Assembly (NCBI RefSeq): GCF_000092025.1
Contig: NC_003062.2
Span: 2,520,001-2,584,000 of the forward strand
Direction: 5' to 3'
Origin: Agrobacterium fabrum str. C58
Lineage (GTDB): Bacteria > Pseudomonadota > Alphaproteobacteria > Rhizobiales > Rhizobiaceae
Length of the DNA stretch: 64,000 nucleotides
The notes under the pieces are model-generated. The model did not search any database. It was not told the DNA's origin and saw only the letters and a list, made by a program, of their open reading frames with translations. Position 1 is the stretch's first letter. The number at the start of each line of letters is the position of its first letter. Of the stretch, positions 7,664 to 36,270 are shown one piece after another. Made by a program: the position numbers and the translations under genes.

Positions 7664-7769
7664 ATGACTTCCTTGTAACTCGATGAAATGCGTCGTAAAG
7701 GACTGCGCGGCAGCACCGGCCCCGGCAGACGTTTTGTCTTTTTTCTGGGGCGCAACTACCTTAAATCCG

Positions 7770-7801
7770 CGCGAATTGCCAGCCTTCTACAGCAATTCGC
7801 G
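7770..7801. promoter_or_regulatory. Perfect 10-bp inverted repeat in the efp/epmA divergent region
   Basis: CGCGAATTGC (7770-7779) faces GCAATTCGCG (7792-7801) with a 12-base spacer. A third GAATTGC copy lies at about 7828-7834. The element sits in the 251-base region between two divergent starts and could be a shared operator or a stem in the efp 5' leader. No regulator can be named. Confidence 0.4.
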
Positions 7802-7914
7802 GAGGAGTGCCTAGCGGTTTTCCGCCCGGAATTGCTTTAAATGATGCATTCAGGCGTTTTGCGGACTGTTTCCCCGCAATCGGGCGCCGCAGAGAAGACA
7901 GAAAAGAACAGACG

Positions 7915-8979: not shown

Positions 8980-10040
8980 CAAGGTTTGAAACCATCAAGA
9001 CACCGGAAGCGCTGCTCGAAGCGGGGCTGATCGAAGCAGAGGCGCTTGAGGGTCTGCGCGCGGTGACGCAGCGTTATGCGCTCGCCATCACGCCAGCGGT
9101 TACCGGGCTGATGGATAGTCACGATCCGCAGGATCCGATCGCCCGGCAATTTGTGCCTGACCTCGCCGAACTCGTCCATCTTCCCGAAGAACGCGACGAT
9201 CCGATCGGCGACGACGCCCATAGCCCCGTCCACGGCATCGTTCACCGTTATCCCGACCGCGTGCTTTTGAAGGCGGTGCATGTTTGCCCGGTCTATTGCC
9301 GTTTCTGTTTCCGCCGCGAAATGGTCGGCCCGCAGGGCAACGGGATGATGAGCCCGGAAGAGCTGGACGCTGCATTCGCCTATATAAAAGAGAACCCGGC
9401 TATCTGGGAGGTCATCCTCACCGGTGGCGATCCTCTGGTGCTCTCGCCACGACGATTGTCAGACCTGATGAAACGGCTAAGGGACATACCGCACGTCAAG
9501 ATCGTCCGTTTCCATACCCGCGTGCCGGTTGTCGATCCCGACCGCATTGACGCGCCACTGATCGAAGCATTGAAGGCGAGCGGCAAAACCACCTATGTCG
9601 CCCTGCATGCCAATCACGCCCGCGAACTCGGCGATGCTGCCAGAAACGCCTGCGCACGGTTGATCGATGCCGGCATAGCCATGGTCAGCCAGACCGTTCT
9701 TTTGAAGGGCATCAACGATGATCCGGCGGTTCTGGCCGACCTGATGCGCAGCTTCGTCGAAAACCGTATCAAGCCCTATTATCTGCACCATCCCGATCTT
9801 GCCCCGGGCACAAGCCATTTCCGGTTGACGATCGAAGAGGGGCAGCGAATCGTTTCCGCCTTGCGCGGGCATGTCTCCGGTCTTTGCCAGCCGACCTATG
9901 TTCTCGACATCCCCGGCGGTCACGGCAAGGCCATGATCGGCCGAAATGCGGCCGAAAAAACCCGCGATGGCTGTTACTCCGTCTCCGACTTCAACGGAAA
10001 CGATCATATTTACCCGCCGGCGACATCCGGCAGCTATTAA
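8976..10040 (+). CDS. epmB: Lysine 2,3-aminomutase (EpmB/YjeK), EF-P modification
   Basis: The 354-residue protein is a radical-SAM enzyme that converts (S)-lysine to the (R)-beta-lysine used by EpmA. The cluster-binding motif CX3CX2C is visible as CPVYCRFC at about residues 107-114. The C-terminal GGHGK holds the lysine expected to bind pyridoxal phosphate. The ATG at 8976 overlaps the epmA stop; an in-frame ATG at 8949 lies inside epmA and is less likely. The short C-terminal tail fits EpmB rather than the longer clostridial aminomutases. A hairpin with a T-run follows the stop. Confidence 0.93.
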   Translation: MTRFETIKTPEALLEAGLIEAEALEGLRAVTQRYALAITPAVTGLMDSHDPQDPIARQFVPDLAELVHLPEERDDPIGDDAHSPVHGIVHRYPDRVLLKAVHVCPVYCRFCFRREMVGPQGNGMMSPEELDAAFAYIKENPAIWEVILTGGDPLVLSPRRLSDLMKRLRDIPHVKIVRFHTRVPVVDPDRIDAPLIEALKASGKTTYVALHANHARELGDAARNACARLIDAGIAMVSQTVLLKGINDDPAVLADLMRSFVENRIKPYYLHHPDLAPGTSHFRLTIEEGQRIVSALRGHVSGLCQPTYVLDIPGGHGKAMIGRNAAEKTRDGCYSVSDFNGNDHIYPPATSGSY

Positions 10041-19906: not shown

Positions 19907-21930
<2,024 letters not shown>

Positions 21931-22119
21931 GAATGGCCACAGCAAAAGACACTGCCCGCCTTTTGTCAAGGCCGCTCATCAACGCTTGGCAAAGGTGCGG
22001 GAATGACGCATGCTGCCGTTAGTTGTAATTAACCTAACGGTTTAGGTGAATATTATCGTTTGCGGCATAACGATAAGCACAAACCTTCCTAATGTTGATT
22101 TCATTGGAGATACGTCGGA

Positions 22120-22371
22120 ATGAATGCGACTATTCGTGAAATACTGGCAAAATTCGGCCAGCTTCCCACCCCCGTCGATACGATTGCAGATGAAGCAGAT
22201 CTTTATGCGGCAGGCCTCTCTTCCTTCGCATCCGTACAACTGATGTTGGGTATCGAAGAAGCATTCGATATCGAATTCCCCGATAACCTGTTGAACCGCA
22301 AGTCTTTCGCCAGCATCAAGGCCATTGAAGACACCGTTAAGCTCATTCTGGATGGTAAAGAGGCTGCCTGA
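22120..22371 (+). CDS. Acyl carrier protein dedicated to an aminoacyl-ACP ligase
   Basis: The 83-residue protein is a small acidic four-helix carrier. The segment DLYAAGLSSFASVQLMLGIEEAFDIEF aligns with the ACP helix-2 region and makes Ser35 the likely phosphopantetheine site. Homologues in Agrobacterium and Bradyrhizobium are known to be charged with glycine or alanine by class-II-synthetase-like ligases, one of which is encoded two genes downstream. The stop overlaps the next start as TGATG. It is the first gene of a five-gene operon. A housekeeping fatty-acid ACP would carry the DSL motif, which is missing here. Confidence 0.88.
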   Translation: MNATIREILAKFGQLPTPVDTIADEADLYAAGLSSFASVQLMLGIEEAFDIEFPDNLLNRKSFASIKAIEDTVKLILDGKEAA

Positions 22372-23552
22372 TGAACGTGACCGTAGCGCCGCAGGATGAA
22401 ACGCTGTCCGCGCGCGCGGGCCGTGTCGCGACCATTGCCGCAAAGCATGCGGATGACGTGGATGTCACCGGCCGCTTCCCGCAGGAAGCCGTCGATGCCT
22501 TGCGCCGCGAACGTCTCCTCGGCATTCAGGTGCCCTCCTCACTCGGCGGCGAAGGCGCCTCCATTCAAGAGATCGCCGATATCTGCGCCCGGCTCGGCCA
22601 GGCCTGTTCGGCAACCGCAATGATTTTCGCCATGCACCACATCAAGCTGTCCAGCCTGGTGGAACATGGGGTCGACAGCACCTGGCATCCGGGTTTTATG
22701 CGCCGCGTTGCCGGCGAACAGCTACTGCTCGGCTCCGCGACCACCGAAGGCGGCATTGGCGGCAATCTGCGCAACTCTATCTGCGCGATCGAGGTCGAAG
22801 GAGACAGCTGTCGGCTGGAAAAGGATGCCACCGTCATTTCCTACGGCAGCAATGCCGATGCGATCCTCATCACCTCACGCGCCCACAAGGATGCCGCACC
22901 CGCCGATCAGGTGATGACCGTCTTCCTGAAAAATCAGTACACGCTTGAAAAGACCCATGTCTGGGATACGCTCGGCATGCGTGGCACCTGTTCGGACGGT
23001 TTCCTGTTTCGCGGCGAAGCGCCGGCGGCACAGATTTTCCCGAAGCCTTTCGCGGAAATCGCCGCGCAATCCATGCTTGCAAGCTCGCATCTCCTGTGGA
23101 GCGCCGTCTGGTATGGCATCGCCTCGGACGCCGTGCTGCGCGCGCAATCCTTTGTCAGAGCCGCGGCGCGCAAATCGCCCGGCACCGCCCCTCCCGGCGC
23201 AATCCGCCTTGCCGAGGTTTCCACCAAACTGCAGGTGGTCAAATCCAACATCATCGCCGGCATCAAGGCCTACGAGGACACCAAGAGCGATCCCGAAAAG
23301 CTGATGTCCATGGCCTTCGCGGTGGCGATGAACAATGTGAAAATCTGCTCTTCGGAAACCATTCTTGAGATCATCGATCACGCCATGCTGGTCTGCGGCA
23401 TCATGGGCTACAAGAACGGCACGCCCTATAGTCTCGGCCGGCATCTGCGCGACGCGCATTCCGCCCGGCTAATGATTTCCAATGACCGTATTCTCGGCAA
23501 TTCCGCCAATCTCCTGCTGGTTCACAGGCAGGACACCAGCCTCTTGGGATAA
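22371..23552 (+). CDS. Acyl-CoA-dehydrogenase-like flavoprotein, probably acting on carrier-bound aminoacyl groups
   Basis: The 393-residue protein has the three-part acyl-CoA dehydrogenase fold: helical N-domain (1-120), beta-domain including [14 protein letters not shown] (about 125-140), and helical C-domain with [22 protein letters not shown]. The position after RDA where medium-chain dehydrogenases carry the catalytic glutamate (IYEGT) reads [10 protein letters not shown], so classical beta-oxidation chemistry is doubtful. It lies between a carrier protein and an aminoacyl-carrier ligase and is translationally coupled to the carrier. Prolyl-carrier oxidases of pyrrole pathways (PltE type) are members of this superfamily, so a carrier-bound amino acid is the substrate I infer. 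Confidence 0.75.
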
Positions 23553-23556
23553 GACC

Positions 23557-24465
23557 ATGGACATGCAAACATCGTTCCTCGATCGACTGTTCGAAGAAGG
23601 CCTGCTGATTGAAACGGGTGTGGACGGTCTTTATGGACGCAGCGGCCAGTTCGAGGACGTCATTGCCGCATTCGAGCGGCTGATCGACCGCACGGGTGGC
23701 GCCGATGGCGCTGAAGCGATCCGTTTTCCGCCGGGCATCAACCGCGCCTATTTCGAAAAGAGCGGTTACATGAAGAGCTTTCCGCAGCTCGCCGGCACGG
23801 TCCATTCCTTCTGCGGCTGCGAACTCGACCATGTCAGCCTGCTGAAATCAATGGATGAGGGTGGCGACTGGACCAAGGACCAGAAAGCCACCGACATCGT
23901 GTTGACGCCGGCGGCCTGCTACCCGCTATATCCGACGATCGCCAAACGTGGTGCCCTTCCCGCCGGCGGCGGTCTCTATGACATCCAGTCTTATTGCTTC
24001 CGCCATGAACCCTCCAAGGATCCCGCCCGCCAGCAGCTTTTCCGCATGCGCGAATATGTCTGCATGGGCACTGAGTCCGACGTCACCGAATTCCGCCAGA
24101 CCTGGATGGATCGTGGCGTGGAGATGATGAAGGCAGTCGGCCTCGACGTCACCATCGATATTGCCAACGATCCTTTCTTTGGCCGCGCCGGCAAGATGCT
24201 GGCCAACAACCAGCGCGACCAGAACCTGAAATTCGAGCTACTGATCCCGGTCACGTCAGCAACCAACCCGACGGCCTGCATGAGCTTCAATTACCATCAG
24301 GATGCCTTCGGCCAGAAATGGGGCCTGAACCTCGAAAATGGCGATGTCGCCCACACCGCCTGCGTCGGGTTCGGGCTGGAGCGCATCGCGCTGGCGCTGT
24401 TTGCGCATCACGGTCTCGACGTGAAGAAATGGCCTGCAAAGGTCGTGGAAACCCTCTGGGGCTGA
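23557..24465 (+). CDS. Amino acid--[acyl-carrier-protein] ligase (class II synthetase-like)
   Basis: The 302-residue protein is a seryl-tRNA-synthetase-like catalytic core without any tRNA-binding arm. Motif 2 is [18 protein letters not shown] and motif 3 is GFGLERIAL. Cys121, Glu166 and Cys269 have exactly the 45- and 148-residue spacings of the zinc ligands Cys131/Glu176/Cys279 as I recall them for the characterised Bradyrhizobium enzyme. Such ligases activate glycine or alanine and load it on the carrier's phosphopantetheine, not on tRNA. The start at 23557, 5 bases after the flavoprotein stop, gives [12 protein letters not shown]. The product's downstream fate is not established for any species I know. 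Confidence 0.92.
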
Positions 24466-24471
24466 TTATCC

Positions 24472-25455
24472 ATGCGGCAGATTTTTCCGGGCCTCGATCC
24501 CAACACCTATGTGCAGCATCCGCTTCATTCCTCCGAAAGAATGTGGCCGGAGACCAATTGCTACATCGATTTATGGATCGAAGTGCTGGCCTCGAAAGGC
24601 TTATCCCCGGAAGCCATGTTCGGTTTCACCCTTACGCAGGATTTCGAAGGCGACCAGTTCACCTTTTTCAAGGTGCCGCTGGAAGATCTCGAAGCCCTTT
24701 ATGGCGTTCGCGCCACGGAACTCGCGATCTTCGACAAAGTGGAAGACCACATCGCGACGCAGTTGGAGCGCGGCCGCATCTGCCTGATCGAGATGGACAG
24801 CTTCTATATGCCCGACACCCATGGGGTCGGCTATCAGAAGGAGCACGGCAAGACTACCGTCGCCATCAACCGGCTCGATCTCGAAAAGCGGGAACTGGAC
24901 TATTTCCACAATGCCGGCTTTTTTCATCTCTCCGGCGAGGATTTTGACGGGCTCTTCCAGCATCATCTGGCCGAGACCGACCCGCCGTTTCTGCCCTATA
25001 CCGAATTTGCCAAATTCGCAGACAGCAATCCTTCACCGGCGCATATTCGCAAGACGGCCGAACGGCTCTTGAAGTTTCATTTTTCCAGGCGCCCTTCCGC
25101 CAACCCGGTCCGGGCTTTTGCAAAAGTGTTTCCGGCCCAGGTGGAAAAGGTTGCCGACAGGCCCTTCGGCTTCTTCCACAAATACGCCTTCAACACGCTG
25201 CGGCAGCTCGGCGCCAATTTCGAACTGGCGGCAAGCCACCTCGAATGGCTGGACAAGCAAGGTTTTTCTGACGCGAGAGACCACGCGCTCAAGATCTCGG
25301 AGGTCGCTAAAACCGTGCAATTCCAGCTTGCCCGCGCCGTCACGCGTCGTAAGTTCGATGCGCTGGCCACCGTGCTCGATCCGGCCGCCGATGCATGGGA
25401 TGGTTTAATGGAAAGCCTTGGCGAAAAACTATCTGATGCCAGCGAGGCGGCGTGA
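24472..25455 (+). CDS. DUF1839 protein, possible BtrH-like acyltransferase from the carrier
   Basis: The 327-residue cytosolic protein belongs to DUF1839, usually found beside aminoacyl-ACP ligases. It has ETNCYIDLWIEVLASKG near the start, then CLIEMDSFYMPDTHGVGYQKEH and TTVAINRLDL. Cys30, His125 and Asp136 stand where the N-terminal BtrH family (papain-like transferases that move an acyl group from a carrier to an aminoglycoside amine) has its Cys, its D-x-Y-x-LP...H block and its final Asp. I therefore infer a thioester-using acyltransferase that unloads the aminoacyl carrier. The C-terminal 150 residues are helical and unassigned. The stop overlaps the next gene's GTG start. Confidence 0.75.
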   Translation: MRQIFPGLDPNTYVQHPLHSSERMWPETNCYIDLWIEVLASKGLSPEAMFGFTLTQDFEGDQFTFFKVPLEDLEALYGVRATELAIFDKVEDHIATQLERGRICLIEMDSFYMPDTHGVGYQKEHGKTTVAINRLDLEKRELDYFHNAGFFHLSGEDFDGLFQHHLAETDPPFLPYTEFAKFADSNPSPAHIRKTAERLLKFHFSRRPSANPVRAFAKVFPAQVEKVADRPFGFFHKYAFNTLRQLGANFELAASHLEWLDKQGFSDARDHALKISEVAKTVQFQLARAVTRRKFDALATVLDPAADAWDGLMESLGEKLSDASEAA

Positions 25456-27908
25456 GGACCTATCTTCCCGGCGAAAGCGAAGAAGTGTTGAGTGAAGGCT
25501 GGACGCTGACACTAACGCCCGCCGATGCCTGCGAGACCCCGTCCGATATTCCGGCATCGCTCGAAAGCCTTCATGTCTCCGTTCCCGGCACCGTGGGGCA
25601 AGCGTTGGAAGCGGCCGGGAAATTCGATCGCCTTGCCCCCGTCGCCCTAAATGACAGGGACGCCTGGTATCGGCTGACGATGATCTCAGACGCCCGGGAA
25701 CGGGCCATCCTGCGCTTCGATGGTCTTTCCACCATTGCCGAGATCTTCTTCAACGGTGAGCTGATTGCCGCGAGCCAAAGCATGTTCGAAAGGCTGGAAG
25801 TGCCGGTCCAGATGACGGGCGCAGACGAGCTTTCGATCTGCTTCCGGGCGCTGGCACCCCGGCTTGAAAAACCCGGTCCCCGCGCTCGCTGGCGGCCGCA
25901 GATGATGAATACGCAGGGGCTGCGGCTGATCCGTACCACGGCGCTTGGCTATATGCCCGGCTGGTGCCCGGAAATCCATTCCGCAGGCCCGTGGCGACCT
26001 ATCAGCCTCATCAAACAGGACGGCGTGCTGTGCACCCTACGGTCTTCGCTTGACGATACCGGCACGGGAAAGGTCAGCATCGTTCTTCAAGCGAACCGCG
26101 ATATACAGTCCGCACGGCTGATTTGTGCTGGTTACAGCATCAATCTTTCGAAGGCTGAAGACGGCAAACTCCTCGGCGAACTCATCATTCCCGGCGTCGA
26201 AATCTGGTGGCCGCACACTCATGGCAGGCCCGCGCTGCACGAGGTCGTTCTGGAGTTGGACGGCAACCAACACAGGCTCGGACGCACCGGCTTCCGCCAG
26301 GTGGAGATCGATCACGGCGAAGACGGCAATGGTTTCGGCCTCAAGGTAAACGGTCAGCCGGTCTTCTGCCGCGGTGCGGTCTGGACGACGGCCGATATTG
26401 TGCGCCTGCCGGGAACACGGCCGGACTACGAGCCATGGCTAAAAAAAGCCGCCGAAGCCGGTATGAACATGATCCGCGTGGGCGGCACCATGGCCTATGA
26501 GACGCCGGAATTCTTCGCGCTTTGCGACGAACTTGGCATCATGGTCTGGCAGGATGCCATGCTTGCCAATTTCGATTACCCGGCGAAGGACGATGGCCTT
26601 CGTCAGCATATCGTTATGGAAATCGAGCAACTCCTCGAATCGACGGCACTTTCTCCATCGTTTGCCATTTTCTGCGGCGGCAGTGAAATGTACCAGCAGG
26701 GCGCGATGCTCGGCTTGCCGGAACAGATATGGAAGGGCACACTGACCGAAGAAATCCTGCCGGAACTGGTCGCCGAAAAGCGGCCGGATGCGGCCTATGT
26801 TGCCAATTCCCCTTCCGGCGGCGCTTTGCCCTTCTTCCCCAATGCCGGCGTGGGCCACTATTACGGCGTTGGTGCCTATTGCCGGCCATTGGAAGATGCC
26901 CGCCGCGCCGATCTGCGTTTCGCCGCCGAATGTCTCGCCTTCGCCAATATTCCGGAACAGGAGACGCTGGACAGATATCTTCCCGGCGTGGCCGTTCACG
27001 ATCCGCGCTGGAAAGCGCGAACACCGCGTGACCGCGGCGCTTCCTGGGATTTCGAGGATGTCCGCGATCATTATCTGAAGCTGCTTTACGAGGCGGAACC
27101 GGATGTGCTGCGGCGGGAAGACGGCGCCCTTTATCTCGACATGTCGCGCGCCGCGACGGCCGAGGTGATGGAGGCGACGTTCGCCGAATGGCGGCGCAGC
27201 GGCTCTTCCTGTCAGGGCGCTTTGGTCTGGACGCTGCAGGATCTTGTTCCAGGTGCAGGCTGGGGTATCATCGACGCCGCCGGCCGGCCCAAATCCGTCT
27301 GGCATGCGCTGAAAAGAGCGTTCCGCCCCGTTCAGGTCAGCCTTTCCGACGAAGGTACCAACGGGCTCGACATTCACATCCTCAACGATACCGGCGACAG
27401 CCTGAATACCATGCTGGAGCTGACCTGCCTGCGCGAAGGTTTACAGCCCGTCGTTCATGCCAAACGGCCCCTCGCACTGTTGCCGCGAGAGAGCCAGACG
27501 ATTGCCGCAACCGACCTGTTCGGCGCTTTTTTCGATACGACCTATGCCTACCGCTTCGGCCCGCCATCCCACGATGTGACAATCGCTCGCCTTCGGGATA
27601 TTGCAACCGGGCATGTCATCGCCGACGCCTTCCATTTTCCGCTCGGCCGGAAAAAGGCGCTGCATGCCGCAAACCTTCAGGTCGCAATCAGCGAAACAAA
27701 CGGCCACTGGTCCCTCGAAATCGGCACGGACCGGCTGGCGCAATCTGTCCATATCACGGCAGAGGGCTACCGCGCCTGCGAAAGCTGGTTCCATCTCGGC
27801 CCTGGCGAGGCCAGAAAAATCGGCCTTTTACCGGAGACCGCCACAACCGAAGCCCCTCCCTCCGGAGAGGTCGTGTCACTGGGCTCCAGCCGGCGGTTTT
27901 CGTTCTAG
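25452..27908 (+). CDS. Glycoside hydrolase family 2 protein, beta-mannosidase-like
   Basis: The 818-residue protein has a jelly-roll sugar-binding domain (about 1-190), an immunoglobulin-like domain, a TIM barrel (about 290-620) and C-terminal beta domains. In the barrel, Glu412 in FCGGSEM corresponds to the acid/base of GH2 mannosidases, and Glu493 in RFAAECLAF corresponds to the nucleophile, so it looks catalytically intact. No signal peptide is seen, implying cytosolic action on an imported or internal glycoside. The GTG start overlaps the DUF1839 stop, tying it to the aminoacyl-carrier operon. It ends overlapping the convergent hydrolase gene by 33 bases. Beta-mannosidase is the nearest class; the true sugar is unknown. 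Confidence 0.82.
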   Translation: MRTYLPGESEEVLSEGWTLTLTPADACETPSDIPASLESLHVSVPGTVGQALEAAGKFDRLAPVALNDRDAWYRLTMISDARERAILRFDGLSTIAEIFFNGELIAASQSMFERLEVPVQMTGADELSICFRALAPRLEKPGPRARWRPQMMNTQGLRLIRTTALGYMPGWCPEIHSAGPWRPISLIKQDGVLCTLRSSLDDTGTGKVSIVLQANRDIQSARLICAGYSINLSKAEDGKLLGELIIPGVEIWWPHTHGRPALHEVVLELDGNQHRLGRTGFRQVEIDHGEDGNGFGLKVNGQPVFCRGAVWTTADIVRLPGTRPDYEPWLKKAAEAGMNMIRVGGTMAYETPEFFALCDELGIMVWQDAMLANFDYPAKDDGLRQHIVMEIEQLLESTALSPSFAIFCGGSEMYQQGAMLGLPEQIWKGTLTEEILPELVAEKRPDAAYVANSPSGGALPFFPNAGVGHYYGVGAYCRPLEDARRADLRFAAECLAFANIPEQETLDRYLPGVAVHDPRWKARTPRDRGASWDFEDVRDHYLKLLYEAEPDVLRREDGALYLDMSRAATAEVMEATFAEWRRSGSSCQGALVWTLQDLVPGAGWGIIDAAGRPKSVWHALKRAFRPVQVSLSDEGTNGLDIHILNDTGDSLNTMLELTCLREGLQPVVHAKRPLALLPRESQTIAATDLFGAFFDTTYAYRFGPPSHDVTIARLRDIATGHVIADAFHFPLGRKKALHAANLQVAISETNGHWSLEIGTDRLAQSVHITAEGYRACESWFHLGPGEARKIGLLPETATTEAPPSGEVVSLGSSRRFSF

Positions 27909-29735
27909 AGCCAGCCGCTTCACCGTTTCGATATAGATTGTCTTCGCTTCCGGTGTTGAGAGATTGTGATCGGCATCGGGAATGATGGTCAGCGATACGT
28001 TGCGATAGGCCGCCAGCCCGTCACCGTCGGCATCGAAATAATACTGGAAATGCTCGAGGCCATCGTCGTTGTCGCTATAGAGCAGATGGACGGCGGTATT
28101 CTTCGCCTTCAGCCTGTCGAAAGCGCCGAAGACGGCCCGCCCTTCCTCGCTGCCCCTGCGAAACAACCTTGCCGTTTTTGTCGAAAGCCGCTTCATCGTC
28201 GCCTTGAGGATGTTTAGCCCGGCGCTTGCCACATCGACATCGCCGCTGATGAGACGCTTGAATGTCGCACCCTGGCGAAAACGCTGGCTGTATTCCCCGA
28301 AGGAACGCGGCCGTTTATGCAGCGCCTCGTCCACCGAAAGCCCTTTGCGCCAGTGGAAAACAACTGGATTGACCGCGATCACGGCACCGATCCGGTCATC
28401 GGCGAGCGCGCCATTAAAAGCGAGATAGGCGCCGCTGCACCGGCCCGCCGCGATGAAAGGCCCCTTGCCGCGCGTGCCGAGAAAATCGAGCGCGGCGGCC
28501 ACGTCGTCATTCTGCGCGGCATCGTAAAGAACCTGATCGGGTGCGTTTTTGACGGGCGGACTATCGGCAATATTTGCAGCGTCGAAGCGCAATGAGGCAA
28601 CGCCTTCGCGCGCCAAAGTACGTGCCATCTGCACGGAAAGCCTGCCCCAGCCCGCATGCCGGTCGTAAGCGGCGCCAAGCAGGAGAACCGAAGACACTGC
28701 CTCTCGGTCATGCGGCCGACAGAAGACACCGAAGAGCCGCCCGCCATCGCCAAACTGCACCGACTGCTCGATGAAACCACGGCCGCGCTGCGGGGCATTG
28801 AGGATGATATCCTCCCCGGTATTGGCGGGGCTTTCGGCATGGGTTTGAGACAGAACCCAATCCACCAGCCGGTTCACCACATCACCTGAAATTTTCGAGA
28901 GTGTGGGGCTGGAAACGAGATCGTCATAGCCGGAAAACGCTGCCTCCTCCACCTCACAGCCGATTGCAGCGAGATGTTTGGCGAAATCGGCATCGGTCAC
29001 GCGACCGGGTCGCGACAGGACCAGAATGGTGTGCGCCGGAGCGGCCGCGAGATTGGCAAGATTGGTCTTCTTTACCGCATCCGCAACACCTTCAGGCATG
29101 GTCATGCCCGCAATCGCTCCCGCCTCCGCGAGACGTTGACCGGGCCGGAGGCCAAGGCCGTCATCGATCATGGATGACCACATCGCCAGTTCGCGCAGAT
29201 AGGCACGGCCGGAAACGACAGGCGCCAGAAACGCCATGGAACCGGCACCCACTGCATCGGTAAGGGCCTGCGCCGCGATCAGGCAGCCGAGCCCCTGCGC
29301 AACGACCATCACCTCCGCGCATCCGGAAAGACGCTTCAGATAAGCGAATGCAGCACGCGTGTCGGAAAGCCAGTCCGCTACACGACCCGCATCTTCAGGA
29401 TCGAAGGCATCACCCGCGCCGAGATAGTCAAATCGCAGGCTCGCAACGCCGCGAGCCGCCAACCTCTCGGCCAGAACCCGCTGAAACTTGCGGCTGCACA
29501 GCTCCTCCATGCCCCAGGGACTGACGAAAAGAACGGCATGGGCCTGCCTCACATCCCTGCGTGCGGGATGGAAAATTCCAGCTAGCCCGTCAAAAGAGAC
29601 GGGATGTGCAATCGCCCCATCCAGGCCGATGCCGGAAAGCGACAATGCATCAAGAGATGGATCGCTGCCTGTACGCTCTGAGATATCTATCGCCATCGAC
29701 CTTGCCATCATTGCGCCAGTATCCGGCTCAACCAT
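27876..29735 (-). CDS. Two-domain alpha/beta hydrolase with altered nucleophile motifs
   Basis: The 619-residue protein contains two alpha/beta-hydrolase folds in tandem, residues about 45-300 and 325-610 (numbering from ATG 29735; ATGs at 29711 and 29696 are alternatives). Each has the LRFDxxGxGD-type strand: SLRFDYLGAGD and SLRFDAANIAD. The nucleophile elbow of domain 1 reads AQGLG with Gly148 in place of serine, so it is probably inactive. Domain 2 reads GRCSG with Cys433 as the nucleophile, as in exosortase-A-associated hydrolases. Late residues YSDNDDGLEHF and DADHNLS would supply the acid and histidine. It converges on the GH2 gene. An acyl transfer or thioesterase role is inferred. Confidence 0.75.
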   Translation of the reverse strand: MVEPDTGAMMARSMAIDISERTGSDPSLDALSLSGIGLDGAIAHPVSFDGLAGIFHPARRDVRQAHAVLFVSPWGMEELCSRKFQRVLAERLAARGVASLRFDYLGAGDAFDPEDAGRVADWLSDTRAAFAYLKRLSGCAEVMVVAQGLGCLIAAQALTDAVGAGSMAFLAPVVSGRAYLRELAMWSSMIDDGLGLRPGQRLAEAGAIAGMTMPEGVADAVKKTNLANLAAAPAHTILVLSRPGRVTDADFAKHLAAIGCEVEEAAFSGYDDLVSSPTLSKISGDVVNRLVDWVLSQTHAESPANTGEDIILNAPQRGRGFIEQSVQFGDGGRLFGVFCRPHDREAVSSVLLLGAAYDRHAGWGRLSVQMARTLAREGVASLRFDAANIADSPPVKNAPDQVLYDAAQNDDVAAALDFLGTRGKGPFIAAGRCSGAYLAFNGALADDRIGAVIAVNPVVFHWRKGLSVDEALHKRPRSFGEYSQRFRQGATFKRLISGDVDVASAGLNILKATMKRLSTKTARLFRRGSEEGRAVFGAFDRLKAKNTAVHLLYSDNDDGLEHFQYYFDADGDGLAAYRNVSLTIIPDADHNLSTPEAKTIYIETVKRLALERKPPAGAQ

Positions 29736-30039: not shown

Positions 30040-32757
30040 ATGGAACAAAGCCTTACGCGTTATATCTGGTCGCACACGAGGCGGCAGCAGCTTTTCATTC
30101 TGCTGATCGTGGCCCTGTCCATGATCCCCTATTTTCTCGCCTTCGATCTGCCCAAACAGATCGTCAATGGGCCTATCCAAGGGGACGGCTTCGAAGGGGC
30201 GAACGCAACGCAGCTCTTCATGCATCTCACGGTCGATATTCCCTATTGGGGCACCGTGACGCTCTTCCCCGGGATCGAACTCAACCGCATGTCGATGCTG
30301 ATGGGGCTCAGCCTGACATTCCTTGCACTCGTCATCATCAACGGGCTCTTCAAATATTACATCAACACCTACAAGGGCCGCCTTGGCGAGCGGCTTCTCA
30401 GGCGTATACGTTTCGAACTTATTGACCGGATTTTGCGTTTCCCGCCCACGCATTTCAAGCGGGTAAAAGGCGCTGAAATCTCCAGTATGGTGAAGGACGA
30501 GGTGGAACCGCTCGGCGGCTTTACCGGCGATGCCTTCGTACAGCCGGCGCTTCTCGGCGGCCAGGCACTCTCCGCGCTCTTCTTCATTCTCGTGCAGAAT
30601 TTATGGCTCGGTCTGATCGCGGCTTTCATGGCCGCCATACAGGTCGGCATCATCCCCAAAATGCGCCGCCGCCTCATCGAACTTGGCCGCCAGCGGCAGT
30701 TGAGCGCGCGCCAGCTTGCCGGACGTATCGGCGAGATGGTCGATGGTATCGGCACCATCCACGCCTATGACACATCTAATTTCGAGCGCGCCGATGCCTC
30801 ACACCGGCTCGGCGACATCTTCAAGATCCGTTACGATCTCTACCAGTGGAAGTTTCTGGTCAAGTTTATCAATAACTTCCTCGCGCAGCTCACGCCCTTC
30901 TTCTTTTATGCGCTCGGTGGTTATCTGACCCTTAAGGGCAGCCTTGATGTCGGCCAGCTTGTCGCCGTCATCAACGCCTATAAGGAACTGCCGGGACCGC
31001 TGAAGGAACTGATCGACTGGGATCAGGCGCGACAGGATGTCCAGGTAAAATACGAGCAGGTCTTCGAACAGTTCAATACGCCGAACATGATCGACGACAA
31101 GGTGCAGAAACTGTCCCCGGGAACCGTCGCGGCAATCACCGCGCCGCTCGTCATCGCCAATCTGACGCTCGAGGATGATAGCGGCAGCCGGCTTCTGGAG
31201 CAGGCGTCGCTCAAGATCGAGCCGGGCGAGGTGATCGCCATCGTCGGCGGCTCGGGAGCCGAGGCGCTGGCGGATGCGATCGGCCGCACACTCTGGCCGA
31301 CCTCAGGCAAGGTCAGCATCAACGATGTCGACATATTGGAACTGCCGGAGTCGCTCACCGGGCGGCGAATTTCCTATGTCTCGTCGGACAGTTATTTTTT
31401 CCACGCCAGCCTGAAGGACAATCTTCTTTACGGCCTCAAACATGCGCCGCTTGCGGAAAAGAACTACGAAGGCGCTGCGCTGGAGCATCGCAAGTGGGAA
31501 ATCCGCGAAGCCAAGATGGCGGGCAATCCGCTGATCGACATCAACAGCGAATGGATCGACTACGCCTCGAGCCCGGCCGGCGACGGCAAGCCGGAGAACC
31601 TCATCCAGGCCGTTCTGGCCGTGCTCGACAGCGTGGAATTGTCACAGGATATTCTGGAATTTGCCCTGCGCTCGTCGATCGATCCTCTGACCGATCTGCA
31701 TCTTGCCGCCCGCATCGTGGAACTGCGGCATGTGCTGCGCGCCGAACTTGAAAAGGAAAATCTGAGCGGCCTCATCGCGCCCTTCGAACTGGAGAGCTAC
31801 AATAGCGAAGCGACAGTCGGTGAAAACCTGTTGTTCGGCACCATGCGGGATTCTTCCCAGACGATCAGGACCGTCATCGAGAGCGACTATTTCCGATCGC
31901 TGATGCGCGAAACCGGCCTCGTCAAAACCCTGTTCGAAATGGGATACACGATTGCCGAAAACATCGTGGAAATCTTTGCCGACCTGCCGGGAGACCACCC
32001 CTTCTTCCAGCAGCTCACCTTCATGACGCCCGATGACATTCCAGTCTATCAGCAGATGATGCAACGGCTTCAGGGAAAGAGTTTCGACGAGGCCAATGAA
32101 AGCGAAAAGCGCGCGATGCTGCGGCTGAGCTTCTTCTACATAGAACCTCGCCAGCGTTTCGGCCTGCTGTCACCGGAAATCATGAACCGGATCGTCGAAG
32201 TTCGGCACATGTTCCACGAAAACCTGCCCGACAGCCTGAAAAACGTGATCGAAATCTACGATCCGACCAAATACATGAGCGCCACCAGCCTTCTGGATAA
32301 TATTCTCTTCGGCAAGGTGAGCCATCGTTATACCGACGCCTCGCGGCGCATTACCCGAATTGTCGCGGATGTCATGCGCAAGCAGGGCGTCTATGAGCGC
32401 GTGTTGGCGGTGGGGCTGGATTTCAACCTGGGTGCCGGCGGCAAGCGGCTTGGACCGCTTCAGCGCCAGAAGCTCAATCTCGCGCGGGCGCTGATCCGCA
32501 AATCCGATTATTATGTCTTCAACCGCCCCCTTCCCGGTCTTGATCCCCGACAGCAGGAGGAAATTGTCGAACGGGTCATCACACTCCTGAAACAGAATAA
32601 CAATAACCCCTCGATCGTGTGGGTTCTGTCGAATGCGCACCTCTCACGCATGTTCGAGCGGGTGATCGTCGTTCATCAGGGCCTGATCACGGCTGACGGA
32701 AGTTACGAGACTCTCGCCGAGGAAAACGGTACATTCAAGGACATGGTCGCGACATAA
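30040..32757 (+). CDS. ABC-exporter-like membrane protein with degenerate, expanded nucleotide-binding domain
   Basis: The 905-residue protein starts with an exporter-type six-helix membrane domain (residues about 20-320). The ATPase part is abnormal. Walker A reads GGSGAEALA (403-411) with Ala409 instead of lysine. The signature is LGPLQ (804-808) instead of LSGGQ. Walker B reads YYVFNRP with Asn828 and Arg829 replacing the Asp-Glu pair. About 270 extra residues lie between Walker A and signature, and contain a repeat beginning RIVELRH (558) and RIVEVRH (717), each followed by ENLLFG- or DNILFG-like segments. ATP hydrolysis is therefore unlikely. It heads a co-directional set with a cyclic-nucleotide-binding protein 10-43 bases downstream, suggesting a gated or sensory role. 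Confidence 0.85.
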   Translation: MEQSLTRYIWSHTRRQQLFILLIVALSMIPYFLAFDLPKQIVNGPIQGDGFEGANATQLFMHLTVDIPYWGTVTLFPGIELNRMSMLMGLSLTFLALVIINGLFKYYINTYKGRLGERLLRRIRFELIDRILRFPPTHFKRVKGAEISSMVKDEVEPLGGFTGDAFVQPALLGGQALSALFFILVQNLWLGLIAAFMAAIQVGIIPKMRRRLIELGRQRQLSARQLAGRIGEMVDGIGTIHAYDTSNFERADASHRLGDIFKIRYDLYQWKFLVKFINNFLAQLTPFFFYALGGYLTLKGSLDVGQLVAVINAYKELPGPLKELIDWDQARQDVQVKYEQVFEQFNTPNMIDDKVQKLSPGTVAAITAPLVIANLTLEDDSGSRLLEQASLKIEPGEVIAIVGGSGAEALADAIGRTLWPTSGKVSINDVDILELPESLTGRRISYVSSDSYFFHASLKDNLLYGLKHAPLAEKNYEGAALEHRKWEIREAKMAGNPLIDINSEWIDYASSPAGDGKPENLIQAVLAVLDSVELSQDILEFALRSSIDPLTDLHLAARIVELRHVLRAELEKENLSGLIAPFELESYNSEATVGENLLFGTMRDSSQTIRTVIESDYFRSLMRETGLVKTLFEMGYTIAENIVEIFADLPGDHPFFQQLTFMTPDDIPVYQQMMQRLQGKSFDEANESEKRAMLRLSFFYIEPRQRFGLLSPEIMNRIVEVRHMFHENLPDSLKNVIEIYDPTKYMSATSLLDNILFGKVSHRYTDASRRITRIVADVMRKQGVYERVLAVGLDFNLGAGGKRLGPLQRQKLNLARALIRKSDYYVFNRPLPGLDPRQQEEIVERVITLLKQNNNNPSIVWVLSNAHLSRMFERVIVVHQGLITADGSYETLAEENGTFKDMVAT

Positions 32758-32800
32758 ATCCAAGAATGTGACCGAGGTGGAACAAGAACAGGGTAAGGCA

Positions 32801-33256
32801 ATGCTGTTTAAAGACGAAATTCAGATGTTGAAAAGGGTTCCGTTTTTCTCGGAAATGGAACCATCCAAACTCAAGCTGCTCGCATTCGCATCCGACCGGG
32901 TGTCCTATCATGCTGGCGATACACTTTTTCGGCAGGGAGATGTCGGCGATGCGGCCTATGTTCTCCTGACTGGAAAAGTGGATGTTCTGGTCGATTCCCC
33001 ATCGGGCACGCTGAAAGTGGCGGAAATGACCGGCAACGCCATCGTCGGTGAAATCGCCATTCTCTGTGACAGCGTCAGAACCGCGACCATTCGTGCCTCC
33101 ACCAATGTGGAAGCCCTGCGCATCGGCAAGGAACAGTTCTTCAAGCTCATGTCCGATTTCCCCGACATTACCATAAAGGTCATGCGCGTTCTCGCCGAAC
33201 GCCTTACCCAGACGACGGCGGAACTGAGCAAAGCGCGCGCAGGCGCCAAGACATAA
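32801..33256 (+). CDS. Cyclic-nucleotide-binding domain protein (single CNB domain)
   Basis: The 151-residue soluble protein is a lone Crp-type effector domain without DNA-binding helix. The phosphate-binding cassette is VGEIAILCDSVRTATIRAST, with the Gly-Glu and Arg expected to hold the cyclic phosphate and ribose. The barrel strands VSYHAGDTLFRQGDVGDAAY precede it, and a C-terminal helix VMRVLAERLTQTTAELSKA may give dimerisation. The ATG at 32801 is preceded by AGGGTAAGG; an in-frame GTG at 32768 would add 11 residues. It lies directly behind the degenerate ABC protein and ahead of MBL-fold and cyclase genes, so it is the probable receptor for the cyclase product. Confidence 0.88.
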   Translation: MLFKDEIQMLKRVPFFSEMEPSKLKLLAFASDRVSYHAGDTLFRQGDVGDAAYVLLTGKVDVLVDSPSGTLKVAEMTGNAIVGEIAILCDSVRTATIRASTNVEALRIGKEQFFKLMSDFPDITIKVMRVLAERLTQTTAELSKARAGAKT

Positions 33257-33447
33257 ACGACAATTCCTTGCTACCTTGAATGGCGATATTGGAAAAATAA
33301 ATGTCGTACTATTGCAATATAAATGAAATGCTGACTGAATAAGGGGTAAAGGGGCCCGCCAGAAATGTGCGGATATAAGAATCTATAGAAACAACGGGCT
33401 TTCATGGGAGGAAAGCGTGCAAGATTCCGTTGTTATTGGGGTGTGCC

Positions 33448-34308
33448 ATGGCGTTCGATTCCGACACGAGAAGTCGGGAAAGTAATAGAAATTTTCGGGT
33501 AAAGATCTGGGGTGCGCGGGGAACGCTTCCCGTTTCAGGTGAAAACTTCCGAAAATACGGCGGGAATACCATCTGCATCGAGGTGAGATGCGGTGATCAC
33601 GTTCTTTTGTTCGATGCCGGTTCCGGCCTGCATCCCGCTGGTCTTGCCCTGCGGGCGGAAGGCATTACCGACGTCAACCTGTTCTTCTCGCACTGTCACT
33701 ACGACCACATCGTCGGCTTTCCCTATTTCAAGCCCTTTTATAACAGCTCCAACGATGTCGCCATCTGGTCGGGCCATCTGGCCGGAAGCATGACCACCCG
33801 GGAAATGCTCAAGGATTTCATGAGCCCTCCCTGGTTCCCCGTGCCCTTGGAGATTTGCTGCGCAAAGATCGCCACCCGTGACTTCAAGGCGGGCGACGTG
33901 CTCGATGTCCACCCCGGCCTGTCGATCAGAACCGGAATGCTCAACCATCCCGGCAATGCCATCGGATACCGGCTGGACTGGGAAGGTAAGTCGCTGGCCA
34001 TCATCACCGACACCGAACATGAGCCCTCCAGCATCGACGAAACCGTTCTTGATCTCATCAGGGATGTCGATCTCTTCCTCTATGACGCCATGTTCACCGA
34101 TGAGGAAATGGGCCTTTACCGCGGTTATGGCCATTCCTCCTGGCAACAGGCAATCCGCCTTGCCAAACTTGCCGACGCAAAAAATGTTGGCTTCATCCAC
34201 CACGCTCCAAGCCGCAGCGACGAGGAGTTGGACGATATCGAAAAGCAGGCGAAAGCTGAATTTAACGGCGCATTCGCGGCGATGGACGGTCAGGTCATAG
34301 AAATCTGA
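33448..34308 (+). CDS. Metallo-beta-lactamase-fold hydrolase, possible cyclic-nucleotide phosphodiesterase
   Basis: The 286-residue protein has the MBL fold of the ribonuclease Z/PhnP branch. The opening KIWGARGTLPVSG with KYGGNTICIEV is typical of that branch. The metal motif HxHxDH appears as SHCHYDHIVG, later ligands are the histidine in MLNHPGNAIGY and aspartate in AIITDTEHEP, and a final HH pair occurs in GFIHHAPSR. Such enzymes cut phosphodiesters, and class II cAMP phosphodiesterases share the fold. Its position between a cNMP receptor and an adenylate cyclase suggests cAMP turnover, which is inferred. ATG 33448 follows GGGGTG; an in-frame TTG at 33430 is less likely. Confidence 0.8.
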   Translation: MAFDSDTRSRESNRNFRVKIWGARGTLPVSGENFRKYGGNTICIEVRCGDHVLLFDAGSGLHPAGLALRAEGITDVNLFFSHCHYDHIVGFPYFKPFYNSSNDVAIWSGHLAGSMTTREMLKDFMSPPWFPVPLEICCAKIATRDFKAGDVLDVHPGLSIRTGMLNHPGNAIGYRLDWEGKSLAIITDTEHEPSSIDETVLDLIRDVDLFLYDAMFTDEEMGLYRGYGHSSWQQAIRLAKLADAKNVGFIHHAPSRSDEELDDIEKQAKAEFNGAFAAMDGQVIEI

Positions 34309-34575: not shown

Positions 34576-36270
34576 ATGATCCGTTTCTTTTCGGAAACCA
34601 ATTTAAGACGCGCCCGGATCGCATCCGGTCTCATCCTATTTGCTTTCGTTTTTTCCCACCTCTCCAATCATTCCCTTGCACTCATCTCCATCGACACGGC
34701 TGAACGGGCGCGGAAATGGTTCAGCTTGATTTGGCTTAATCCTGTCAGCAGCCTGCTTTTTTACGGGTCGGTCGTGGTGCATGTCTGCCTTGTACTGCGC
34801 TCGCTTTATCTGCGCAGGACATTGCGCATGCCGCTGCGCGAGGCGCTTCAGGTCATATTCGGACTGTCGATCCCGTTTCTGATCATCGGCCATGCGGTCA
34901 ATATCCGCGCCTCACATATGCTTTATGGCATCGACGTCGGTTATTATTCCGTCATCCGGAGGCTGTGGATAAACAATCCGGTCAGCGGAGCGTGGCAGAG
35001 CCTCGCGTTGATTGTCATCTGGACCCATGGATGCATCGGCCTCTATTTCTGGCTGCGTTATCGCGACTGGTATCCAAAAATCGCCGGGCTGTTCATGACG
35101 GTGGCTGTGATGCTGCCGCTTCTGGCCTTGCTGGGCTTCAGCGATGCGGGCCGCTGGCTGGAAGAGGTAGATCGGAAATATGCACTTCCTCCGGGGCTTA
35201 CGGATAACACTATCCAGAGAGACGAACTGCCGCTGCAAAGGGAGATGGAAACGCGGATCCGGTTCATCACAGGTGCGACCGAGGCAATTTTCGCCGGCGC
35301 GGTGATGCTGGTCTTCGTTTTGCGTGGTGTGCGAAGCTTCCGGCAAAGGCTGACCGCGATTGAAATCCACTATGAACAGGGCGTGCAGGCGCGTATTCCG
35401 GCCGGCTTCAGTATTCTGGAAGCCAGCAGGCTCGCGGGCATCCCGCATTACTCGGTCTGTGGCGGCAAGGGGCGCTGCTCGACCTGTCGCGTCAAGGTTC
35501 TGAACAGCAAGGGCCCGCTTCCGCCACCCGGAGATATCGAGCAGACCACGCTCCGGCGTATCCACGCCGATTCGGACGTGCGGCTCGGTTGTCAGTTGCG
35601 CCCCACCAGCGATCTCGACATCGCGCTTCTCGTTTCACCGCCCCAGCAAAGCGATCTGCCCGCGGATGCGCAGTCGGCCCGCCCCGGTCGGGAAGAGGAA
35701 ATCGCCATTCTCTTCTGCGATCTGCGCAATTTCACCACGCTGTCGGAAGCGAAGCTGCCCTATGATGTGGTCTTCCTTTTGAACCGCTACTTCACCATCG
35801 TCGGCCAGGCCGTCGAACAGGCCGATGGTCATCTCGACAAATTCATCGGCGATGGCGCCATGGCCCTTTTTGGACTTGGCGAGGATACGGACCGGGCCTG
35901 CCGCAACGCCATGAAGGCAGCCGCAACCATATTGCGGGATATCGCCATCCTGAACGAAGGGTTGGAGAAACAATTCGCCGTCCGCCTGGAAGTGGTGGTT
36001 GGCATTCACTCCGGCCCGAGCATCGTCGGCGTGATGGGATATGGCGCGGCAAAAACCCTGACAGCCATAGGCGATACCGTGAATGTGGCAAGCCGGCTCG
36101 AATCCAAGGCCAAGGAATTCGGCGCCGCCATCGTCGTTTCCGAACCGGCCATCATCCAGGCAGGACAGGATATTGCCGATCTCAGAAGCGAAAACATCGC
36201 CATTCGCGGACGAAACTCGCAGATGAAAGTGTATCTGCTCTCAAGAGAAGAGAGCGAGCGTTATCTATGA
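34576..36270 (+). CDS. Membrane adenylate cyclase with 2Fe-2S ferredoxin domain
   Basis: The 564-residue protein has three parts. Residues about 10-250 are a membrane domain of about six helices with several histidines (FSHLSNHS, VVVHVC, IIGHAV). Residues about 262-350 are a 2Fe-2S ferredoxin with Cys295, Cys301, Cys304 and Cys339, the CX5CX2C...C spacing of adrenodoxin types. Residues about 368-560 are a class III cyclase: metal ligands Asp382 and Asp426, adenine-selecting Lys422 and Asp500, transition-state Asn503 and Arg507. All catalytic positions look intact, so cAMP production is predicted. Redox control by the iron-sulfur cluster or by the membrane part is inferred. It closes the block with the cNMP-binding and MBL genes. 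Confidence 0.9.
   Translation: MIRFFSETNLRRARIASGLILFAFVFSHLSNHSLALISIDTAERARKWFSLIWLNPVSSLLFYGSVVVHVCLVLRSLYLRRTLRMPLREALQVIFGLSIPFLIIGHAVNIRASHMLYGIDVGYYSVIRRLWINNPVSGAWQSLALIVIWTHGCIGLYFWLRYRDWYPKIAGLFMTVAVMLPLLALLGFSDAGRWLEEVDRKYALPPGLTDNTIQRDELPLQREMETRIRFITGATEAIFAGAVMLVFVLRGVRSFRQRLTAIEIHYEQGVQARIPAGFSILEASRLAGIPHYSVCGGKGRCSTCRVKVLNSKGPLPPPGDIEQTTLRRIHADSDVRLGCQLRPTSDLDIALLVSPPQQSDLPADAQSARPGREEEIAILFCDLRNFTTLSEAKLPYDVVFLLNRYFTIVGQAVEQADGHLDKFIGDGAMALFGLGEDTDRACRNAMKAAATILRDIAILNEGLEKQFAVRLEVVVGIHSGPSIVGVMGYGAAKTLTAIGDTVNVASRLESKAKEFGAAIVVSEPAIIQAGQDIADLRSENIAIRGRNSQMKVYLLSREESERYL

What the first reader, a model, noticed from the sequence alone, without database searches (positions are those of the whole stretch)
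22120..27908. Five-gene aminoacyl-carrier-protein operon with a complete load, modify, transfer logic
Carrier protein, ACAD-like flavoprotein, aminoacyl-ACP ligase, DUF1839 and GH2 are packed with overlaps of 1-4 bases or gaps of 4-6 bases. The ligase type is known biochemically (amino acid transfer to a carrier rather than to tRNA), but no product or pathway is established that I know of. The neighbours suggest one: load an amino acid, oxidise it, move it to an acceptor, and process a glycoside. This is the strongest candidate in the window for an undescribed pathway.
Basis: partly seen in the sequence, partly recalled or inferred. Interest (0 to 1): 0.88.

Follow-up and report, generated by a model that had tools for sequence, protein, structure and literature searches.

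The report
Amino-acid decoration operon for exopolysaccharide
A block of five (probably six) bacterial genes appears to load an amino acid onto a small carrier protein, alter it and attach it to a slime sugar polymer; the product is still unknown, and a closely similar idea was put in print as a prediction in 2010.

Summary
In detail: carrier protein, ACAD-like flavoprotein, amino acid:carrier-protein ligase, DUF1839 and GH2 lie head to tail at 22120-27908. The order holds in 16 of 16 DUF1839-bearing genomes of a 398-genome phylum sample and in 78 of the 80 nearest named loci; it recurs in Azospirillum, Mycetohabitans, Caballeronia and Cupriavidus.

(2) A likely sixth partner, a tandem alpha/beta-hydrolase with a GxCxG elbow, fused to a flippase in 23 of 80 loci. 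(3) DUF1839 Cys30 behaves like an active site: lost about four times; all 40 Cys- copies read in multi-copy genomes have a Cys+ sibling; the one lone Cys- copy is in a genome without the ligase, whose hydrolase also lost its Cys. (4) The flavoprotein lacks both ACAD catalytic acids. (5) Five Rhizobium plasmids carry it directly after nif genes. Product and acceptor remain unproven.

The parts
22120..22371 (+). carrier protein (83 aa), phosphopantetheine site Ser35
   Evidence: PP-binding, NF005480 above cut-off; Ser35 conserved in 19 of 19 copies that aligned (15 with DUF1839, 4 of the 12 loci without)
22371..23552 (+). ACAD-fold flavoprotein (393 aa) without the canonical catalytic Glu; proposed to modify the aminoacyl group on the carrier
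   Evidence: Pfam ACAD domains; no NCBIfam model over its cut-off; Ser239 and Ile369 at the two catalytic-acid positions, 0 of 27 acidic; PDB neighbours are ACADs and sugar nitrososynthases at similar scores
23557..24465 (+). amino acid:[carrier protein] ligase (302 aa), SerRS-like
   Evidence: NF005479 513.6 vs 357 bits; PDB Bll0957-type ligase entries E=9.7e-95 and 6.6e-100
24472..25455 (+). DUF1839 (327 aa), proposed papain-like acyl transferase, Cys30-Thr128-His146
   Evidence: Pfam 440.6 bits; published fold modelling (PMC10318531, passages); Cys30 distribution
25452..27908 (+). GH2 beta-mannosidase-like glycosidase (818 aa, GTG start); no N-terminal hydrophobic segment seen by eye, so read as cytosolic
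   Evidence: beta-mannosidases are the best PDB matches; Glu412 and Glu493 in 15 of 15
27876..29735 (-). tandem alpha/beta-hydrolase (619 aa), convergent, overlapping GH2 by 33 bases; proposed sixth partner; GRCSG elbow, Cys433
   Evidence: hydr1_PEP/hydr2_PEP relatives below cut-off; elbow Cys in 70 of 71 aligned copies; sixth gene in Azospirillum and Mycetohabitans; in one open frame with a flippase in 23 of 80 loci

Best explanation
It is a cytosolic pathway that decorates an exopolysaccharide repeat unit with a modified amino acid. Step 1 (reported in print for orthologues, seen second-hand; not tested here): the SerRS-like ligase adenylates a small amino acid and loads it on the carrier's phosphopantetheine. 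Step 2 (inferred): the ACAD-fold flavoprotein oxidises the carrier-bound aminoacyl group, most likely at the amine or the N-C-alpha bond and not by classical alpha,beta-dehydrogenation. Step 3 (inferred): DUF1839 uses Cys30-Thr128-His146 to take the acyl group as a thioester and hand it to an amine or hydroxyl of a lipid-linked sugar. Step 4 (inferred): the GH2 trims or recycles mannoside-like intermediates, and the Cys-type alpha/beta-hydrolase, in part of the rhizobia fused to a flippase, does a second acyl transfer or proofreading step coupled to export.
For: Loading: NF005479 and Bll0957-type matches; a review's table records aa:CP ligases adding Gly, Ala and Ser (PMC9437257, passages). 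Co-inheritance: 16 of 16 DUF1839 genomes also have an over-cut-off ligase (28 of 398 overall) in the same gene order. EPS link: alpha/beta-hydrolase and flippase in one open frame in 23 of 80 loci, side by side or near in 10 more; sugar-1-phosphate transferase within 10 kb of a DUF1839 in 11 of 13 genomes vs 0.18 expected; GMP/PMI, Wzc, Wza and WcaJ-type genes around the operon; C. metallidurans CH34 has all of it in about 24 kb. Catalysis: both copies were read in 42 of 47 multi-copy genomes: 40 have a Cys- copy and a Cys+ copy, 2 have both Cys+, none has both Cys-. G486, the one single-copy Cys- case among 31 single-copy genomes read, has no ligase match, no GH2 match beside it, and its hydrolase lost its elbow Cys.
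Against: No product, acceptor or acyl-enzyme has been observed. Neighbours are suggestive, not proof: in Mycetohabitans G436 the nearest sugar-1-P transferase is 475 kb away, and Azospirillum and the Caballeronia M1242 operon locus show no annotated EPS gene in the 15-16 kb on each side (that gene table is incomplete). In the window itself the nearest glycan genes (UDP-sugar dehydrogenase, GT) start about 9-10 kb downstream. 12 of 28 ligase genomes have no DUF1839 and no GH2 match, so the core serves another end there. Three genomes keep a Cys+ DUF1839 without a ligase (G608, G631, G540); I read their neighbourhoods as remnants. No alpha/beta-hydrolase match in 26 of 80 loci and no flippase match in 47 of 80. 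The fold of DUF1839 could not be tested (predictor busy in every attempt).
Confidence: 0.5

Rival explanations
1. The pathway makes a diffusible small molecule (modified amino acid, signal or antimetabolite): ligase and carrier load the amino acid, the flavoprotein converts it, and DUF1839 or the hydrolase releases it or joins it to a sugar; EPS neighbours are incidental.
For: ACAD plus ligase (with a carrier in most) occur without DUF1839 and GH2 in 12 genomes, in some beside metabolic genes such as homoserine O-succinyltransferase and a Cys/Met-type PLP enzyme. Azospirillum, Mycetohabitans and Caballeronia operon loci lack close annotated EPS genes. Some plasmid copies stand among mobile genes.
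Against: Flippase fusion and repeated EPS-cluster placement in two classes of bacteria. Exporters of small molecules were not searched for systematically.
Confidence: 0.22
2. The target is LPS or another surface glycolipid rather than EPS, as in the 2010 prediction of amide ligation to a cell-surface sugar derivative.
For: PMC2922099 reports liposaccharide-biosynthesis neighbours; Mycetohabitans has an Ara4N-transferase gene about 8 kb before the operon; the Agrobacterium window has glycosyltransferases and a UDP-sugar dehydrogenase downstream.
Against: Wza, Wzc and PMI-GMP genes next to the operon are of the polymer-export type.
Confidence: 0.2
3. The flavoprotein is an ordinary dehydrogenase that uses an unrecognised base, giving a dehydroamino-acyl carrier like the prolyl-carrier dehydrogenases of pyrrole antibiotics. 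(This concerns step 2 only and can be true together with any of the others.)
For: Weak match to L-prolyl-[PCP] dehydrogenase RedW (26.6 bits, far below its cut-off 650) and to many ACADs.
Against: Both known catalytic-acid positions (recalled) are non-acidic in 27 of 27 copies, and glycine, loaded by some relatives according to a review table, has no beta carbon.
Confidence: 0.3

Closest known systems
Amino acid:[carrier protein] ligases of Mocibob and colleagues 2010/2013 (Bll0957; others recalled: Bll6282, Atu2573)
   Same: Same ligase family and carrier; Atu2573 would be, from recalled locus order, the A. tumefaciens orthologue of this ligase; Bll0957-type structures match
   Different: As far as I know second-hand, that work ends at aminoacyl-carrier; the fate of the amino acid is what the rest of the operon addresses
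Prediction of Iyer and Aravind 2010 (PMC2922099, note in proof, passages read)
   Same: Same neighbourhood, Atu2574 as amide ligase, redox enzyme as modifier, glycosidase and saccharide genes
   Different: In the passages read there is no flippase fusion, no active-site test, no alpha/beta-hydrolase partner for this system and no nif linkage; its supplement was not seen
Butirosin side-chain transfer BtrH (ACP:aminoglycoside acyltransferase)
   Same: Works alike: papain-like cysteine enzyme moves an aminoacyl group from a carrier to a sugar amine
   Different: No significant sequence match: BtrH_N reached only E=0.13 in 1 of 18 DUF1839 members
Dlt D-alanylation (DltA/DltC/DltB/DltD) and AlmEFG (recalled)
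   Same: Works alike: amino acid loaded on a carrier and put on a cell-surface polymer or lipid
   Different: Different loader (SerRS-like, not an A-domain), no MBOAT among the operon genes, extra flavoprotein and GH2
Exosortase-A-associated hydrolases 1 and 2 (TIGR03100, TIGR03101)
   Same: Tandem relatives make up the sixth gene
   Different: All five hydrolases tested (window, L052, L055, L061, L276) score below both curated cut-offs; no search for an exosortase was made

Membership tests
amino acid--[acyl-carrier-protein] ligase (NF005479) | score over curated cut-off | tested here: met
   513.6 vs 357 bits
amino acid--[acyl-carrier-protein] ligase (NF005479) | loads amino acid on carrier, not tRNA | not testable with these tools
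   reported for relatives; seen second-hand in PMC2922099 and PMC9437257
PP-binding carrier protein | phosphopantetheine-accepting Ser | tested here: met
   Ser35 in 19 of 19 aligned copies
classical acyl-CoA dehydrogenase | catalytic Glu at the MCAD Glu376 or IVD Glu254 position (positions recalled; the first placed by ungapped extension of the printed alignments) | tested here: not met
   Ile369 in 27 of 27; position 239 is Ser, Ala, Cys or Thr in 27 of 27
nitrososynthase / class D flavin mono-oxygenase | closer to these than to ACADs, with N-oxygenation | tested here: inconclusive
   with one sequence the top five PDB matches include DnmZ, a nitrososynthase and two entries that I recall as KijD3; with a profile they are mixed with ACADs; chemistry untested
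DUF1839 (PF08893) | Pfam gathering score | tested here: met
   440.6 vs 22.5 bits
papain-like cysteine enzyme | C(T/S)H triad as published for DUF1839 | tested here: met
   Cys30, Thr128 and His146 in the window; Thr128 and His146 in 64 of 64 Cys+ sequences. Which Thr and His the paper means is my assignment
papain-like cysteine enzyme | papain-like fold | not tested
   structure predictor busy in all attempts; published modelling only
BtrH | sequence membership in BtrH_N | tested here: not met
   best E=0.13, 1 of 18 members
GH2 beta-mannosidase type | acid/base and nucleophile Glu | tested here: met
   Glu412 and Glu493 in 15 of 15, in the motifs that align with beta-mannosidases (roles of the two Glu recalled)
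Dlt D-alanylation | A-domain DltA and MBOAT DltB | tested here: not met
   no such domain among the five genes and the next four genes
exosortase-A hydrolase 1 / 2 | score over curated cut-offs | tested here: not met
   82.5 vs 168.45 and 66.4 vs 202.75 bits for the window

The most novel reading that the evidence does not exclude
The operon puts an N-oxygenated amino acid (for example N-hydroxy- or oximino-alanyl) on exopolysaccharide. Transfer is done by a DUF1839 pair in which one subunit has lost its cysteine and serves as a non-catalytic partner. In some Rhizobium symbionts the module has been captured behind the nitrogenase operon, so that the coat is altered inside nodules.
Probability: 0.12. 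Interest if true: 0.88.

Novelty: new variant of a known kind. Interest (0 to 1): 0.64.

Why it matters
A family of carrier-loading enzymes descended from tRNA synthetases has been known since 2010, and I found no product named for it in the listings and passages seen. Placing it in exopolysaccharide clusters, naming a likely sixth gene, and showing a cysteine that was found lost only beside an intact sibling or together with the ligase gives a direct test: look for an amino-acid substituent on the EPS of mutants. If confirmed it would be a new route for amino-acid decoration of bacterial surface polymers, in plant and fungal symbionts among others.

Tried and rejected
Rejected: (1) NRPS-like peptide synthesis: no condensation domain among the operon genes. 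(2) Classical dehydrogenase reading of the ACAD gene. (3) DUF1839 as BtrH family member: no significant match. (4) DUF1839 relation to TniQ: E 0.42-0.57, chance. (5) Substrate beta-lysine from the neighbouring EF-P genes: the linkage is seen in some Rhizobiaceae loci and not in the annotated Azospirillum, Mycetohabitans and Caballeronia stretches. (6) A C-terminal ACAD fragment against the PDB: no hit. (7) Literature: searches; in the listings and passages that I saw no product is named for this operon. The library holds open-licence papers only and the key 2010 and 2013 ligase papers were not read, so absence there is not absence in print.

Led nowhere: structure prediction (13 attempts with A2; one with A3; all 'busy'), so no fold search was made. 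The plasmid table has no gene names for C. metallidurans, so I used tblastn.

Limits: the 80 genome-contig loci are the nearest of at least 562 relatives. The 13 genomes of the EPS-proximity count were partly chosen by me (two-copy, single-copy and decayed cases) and are related, so the tail probability printed is not used. The 87 DUF1839 proteins of A2 are the window's and 86 of 240 returned. The 105 DUF1839 sequences were chosen to include second copies, so their Cys- share is not a frequency. 'Flippase' beyond L052 (Pfam) means a tblastn match to that domain.
Full report
OBSERVATION. The five genes are present at the stated coordinates, on one strand, with overlaps of 1 and 4 bases and gaps of 4 and 6. 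The operon is preceded by the divergent thiC with a TPP riboswitch and followed by a convergent alpha/beta-hydrolase gene that overlaps the GH2 end by 33 bases.

CO-OCCURRENCE. In one even sample of 398 genomes of the phylum, a ligase match at E<=1e-10 was found in 44, over the family cut-off in 28, and DUF1839 in 16; all 16 are among the 28. I fetched 11-20 kb around the loci of the 27 other genomes with an over-cut-off ligase. In the 15 with DUF1839 the order is carrier, ACAD, ligase, DUF1839, GH2 in all 15. In the 12 without DUF1839, ACAD and ligase are side by side in 12 of 12; a carrier was matched in 8 of 12 (10 of 12 with the clustering), on the strand opposite to the ACAD gene; no GH2 match was found in any. 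So carrier-ACAD-ligase looks like the core, and DUF1839 with GH2 an added branch. Six divergent loci below the cut-off (L078-L083) showed no carrier or ACAD match. Among named genome contigs, 78 of the 80 closest loci have all five genes. In plasmid and chromid records DUF1839 is in 59 of 72,556: Rhizobium 18, Azospirillum 11, Mycetohabitans 9, Caballeronia 7, Cupriavidus 4, Burkholderia 4, Shinella 3, Methylobacterium 2, Phyllobacterium 1.

A SIXTH PARTNER. In Azospirillum and Mycetohabitans the alpha/beta-hydrolase is the sixth gene, overlapping GH2 by 4 bases. In Rhizobium locus L052 it is one 1108-residue ORF with an N-terminal polysaccharide flippase domain and two hydrolase domains. In the 80 named loci a hydrolase match occurs in 54 and a flippase match in 33; in 23 of the 33 the two are in one open frame, in 10 they are separate. 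The hydrolase has two halves. In the C-terminal half the nucleophile elbow is GxCxG in 70 of 71 aligned copies; in the N-terminal half Ser or Cys is missing at that place except in two copies with GQSLG (some genomes were fetched twice). A cysteine elbow is what one expects of an acyl transferase working on thioesters, as in PHA synthase (recalled). Its relation to exosortase hydrolases 1 and 2 is below their cut-offs in the five proteins tested.

LINK TO EXOPOLYSACCHARIDE. In Burkholderiaceae-type genomes the operon or a second DUF1839 sits among WcaJ-type sugar transferase, GMP/PMI, Wzc, Wza and glycosyltransferase genes. For 13 genomes I located every PF02397 sugar-1-phosphate transferase: 11 of 13 have one within 10 kb of a DUF1839, against 0.18 expected if placed at random. 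The misses are G436 (Mycetohabitans, 475 kb away) and G249 (none on the contig of its DUF1839, but Wza and Wzc matches directly downstream). The clearest named case is the C. metallidurans CH34 megaplasmid: WcaJ, carrier, ACAD, ligase, DUF1839, GH2, then a second DUF1839, GMP/PMI, Wzc and the hydrolase, with Wza and another Wzc, in about 24 kb. In the window itself the link is weaker: a UDP-sugar dehydrogenase and glycosyltransferases begin 9-10 kb downstream. Azospirillum and the Caballeronia M1242 operon locus show no annotated EPS gene nearby, though M1242's second DUF1839, on another replicon, is beside a WcaJ-type gene (L269).

DUF1839 CYSTEINE. A 2023 survey modelled DUF1839 as papain-like with a C(T/S)H triad (PMC10318531, passages read). 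In my 18-sequence alignment Cys30 is present in 16; in the 87 sequences of A2 it is present in 72. Where it is missing is informative. In 249 genomes of family f66, 111 have DUF1839 and, by my count of the table, 47 have more than one match. I read both kinds of copy in 42 of the 47: in 40 there is a copy with Cys and a copy with Arg, Gln, Ala, Gly or Ser; in 2 (G511, G492) both have Cys; in none do both lack it (for 21 of the 40 the Cys+ copy rests on the motif pattern lying inside the DUF1839 match). Five multi-match genomes were not fully read. Of 64 single-copy genomes I read 31: 30 have Cys, 1 (G486) has Ala. A tree of 105 sequences needs four Cys changes by parsimony: one clade of 18, one of 21 and two single sequences. 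Asp33, Glu37, Asp61, Asp109, His146 and Asn249 are kept in all 40 of these Cys- copies, so they look like conserved proteins, not debris; Thr128 is kept in one Cys- group and changed in the other. Which copy lacks Cys differs: the operon copy in G255, G328 and CH34, the stand-alone copy beside a WcaJ-type gene in G609, G469 and G459; G614 fits neither plan exactly.

A NATURAL KNOCK-OUT. G486, the only lone Cys- copy read, has no ligase match in the genome, no GH2 match beside it, and its alpha/beta-hydrolase is the one of 71 that lost the elbow Cys (GIGTG). Its carrier and ACAD matches remain. This is a single genome, but it ties the ligase, DUF1839 and hydrolase together. Three other genomes have Cys+ DUF1839 and no ligase match (G540, G608, G631); their neighbourhoods hold partial operons. 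That is against a strict rule, and I read it as recent decay.

FLAVOPROTEIN. The two places where acyl-CoA dehydrogenases keep their catalytic acid (recalled positions) are Ser/Ala/Cys/Thr239 and Ile369 in 27 of 27 copies, in both branches of the family, while His240, Asn371 and Arg373 are invariant. With a single sequence, the five best PDB matches are one short-chain dehydrogenase, DnmZ, a nitrososynthase and two 'FAD-dependent oxidoreductase' entries that I recall as KijD3; with a profile they are mixed with dehydrogenases. So it is probably not a classical dehydrogenase; mono-oxygenation is the best guess, as Iyer and Aravind also wrote, but unproven.

GH2. Best PDB matches are beta-mannosidases (152 bits); both catalytic Glu are conserved in 15 of 15. 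I saw no signal-peptide-like start; no predictor was run.

NIF LINK. Of 11 Rhizobium plasmid records that I opened (of 18), five have the module directly after a nif gene run that includes nifN and nifX (R. gallicum M101, IE4872, R602sp; R. acidisoli FH23; Rhizobium sp. C104). An annotated exopolysaccharide-production repressor gene lies between in four of them (a hypothetical protein in IE4872), and it overlaps the carrier gene by 4 bases in FH23 and C104. An ACC deaminase gene follows in three (IE4872, C104, R602sp). The other six show no nif gene in the 9-12 kb on each side. One literature search was made for this; the single paper listed, a review of EPS regulation, was not opened.

PRIOR ART. 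Citing papers found by the phrase search were seen as a listing, apart from passages of PMC2922099 and PMC9437257. PMC10888616 lists bll0957 and the acyl-CoA dehydrogenase gene bll0958 in a table of proteins changed in a phaR mutant (passage read). PMC11941606 names Atu2573 as a co-expression hub gene (passage read). PMC12930378 was seen in passages only and bears on other ligases.

VERDICT. Real, conserved and a good target. Product and acceptor remain unknown.

Noticed in passing
window 21826-21937 (-): TPP riboswitch (RF00059, 75.1 bits) ahead of thiC, divergent from the operon.
   Followed up: no
window 7094-10040; L173, L051, L052, L057, L059: Radical-SAM lysine-aminomutase-like gene at 8973-10037 with efp/epmA-like ORFs beside it (read by eye) lies about 12 kb upstream in the window; efp, epmA and a lysine-2,3-aminomutase-like gene are directly upstream of the carrier gene in Rhizobium sp. 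NLR16a, and related genes in similar loci.
   Followed up: partly
L166, L169, L172, L174, L285: On five Rhizobium plasmids (nodule or Phaseolus isolates) the module follows nif genes, in four with an annotated EPS-production repressor between.
   Followed up: partly
window 34576-36270: Class III adenylate/guanylate cyclase domain with a 2Fe-2S ferredoxin domain in one protein.
   Followed up: no
window 30040-34308: 905-residue ABC transporter followed by cyclic-nucleotide-binding and metallo-beta-lactamase-fold genes; the transporter is matched beside the operon in 18 of 80 loci.
   Followed up: no
L009 (G197): The ligase match in G197 is reported with one TAA inside, while an open 302-residue ORF is also found there.
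   Followed up: no
L066-L077: Twelve loci with ACAD and ligase but no DUF1839 lie, in those looked at, beside PNP_UDP_1 phosphorylase and IF-2B family genes, or homoserine-succinyltransferase and PLP-enzyme genes: a different use of the same core.
   Followed up: partly
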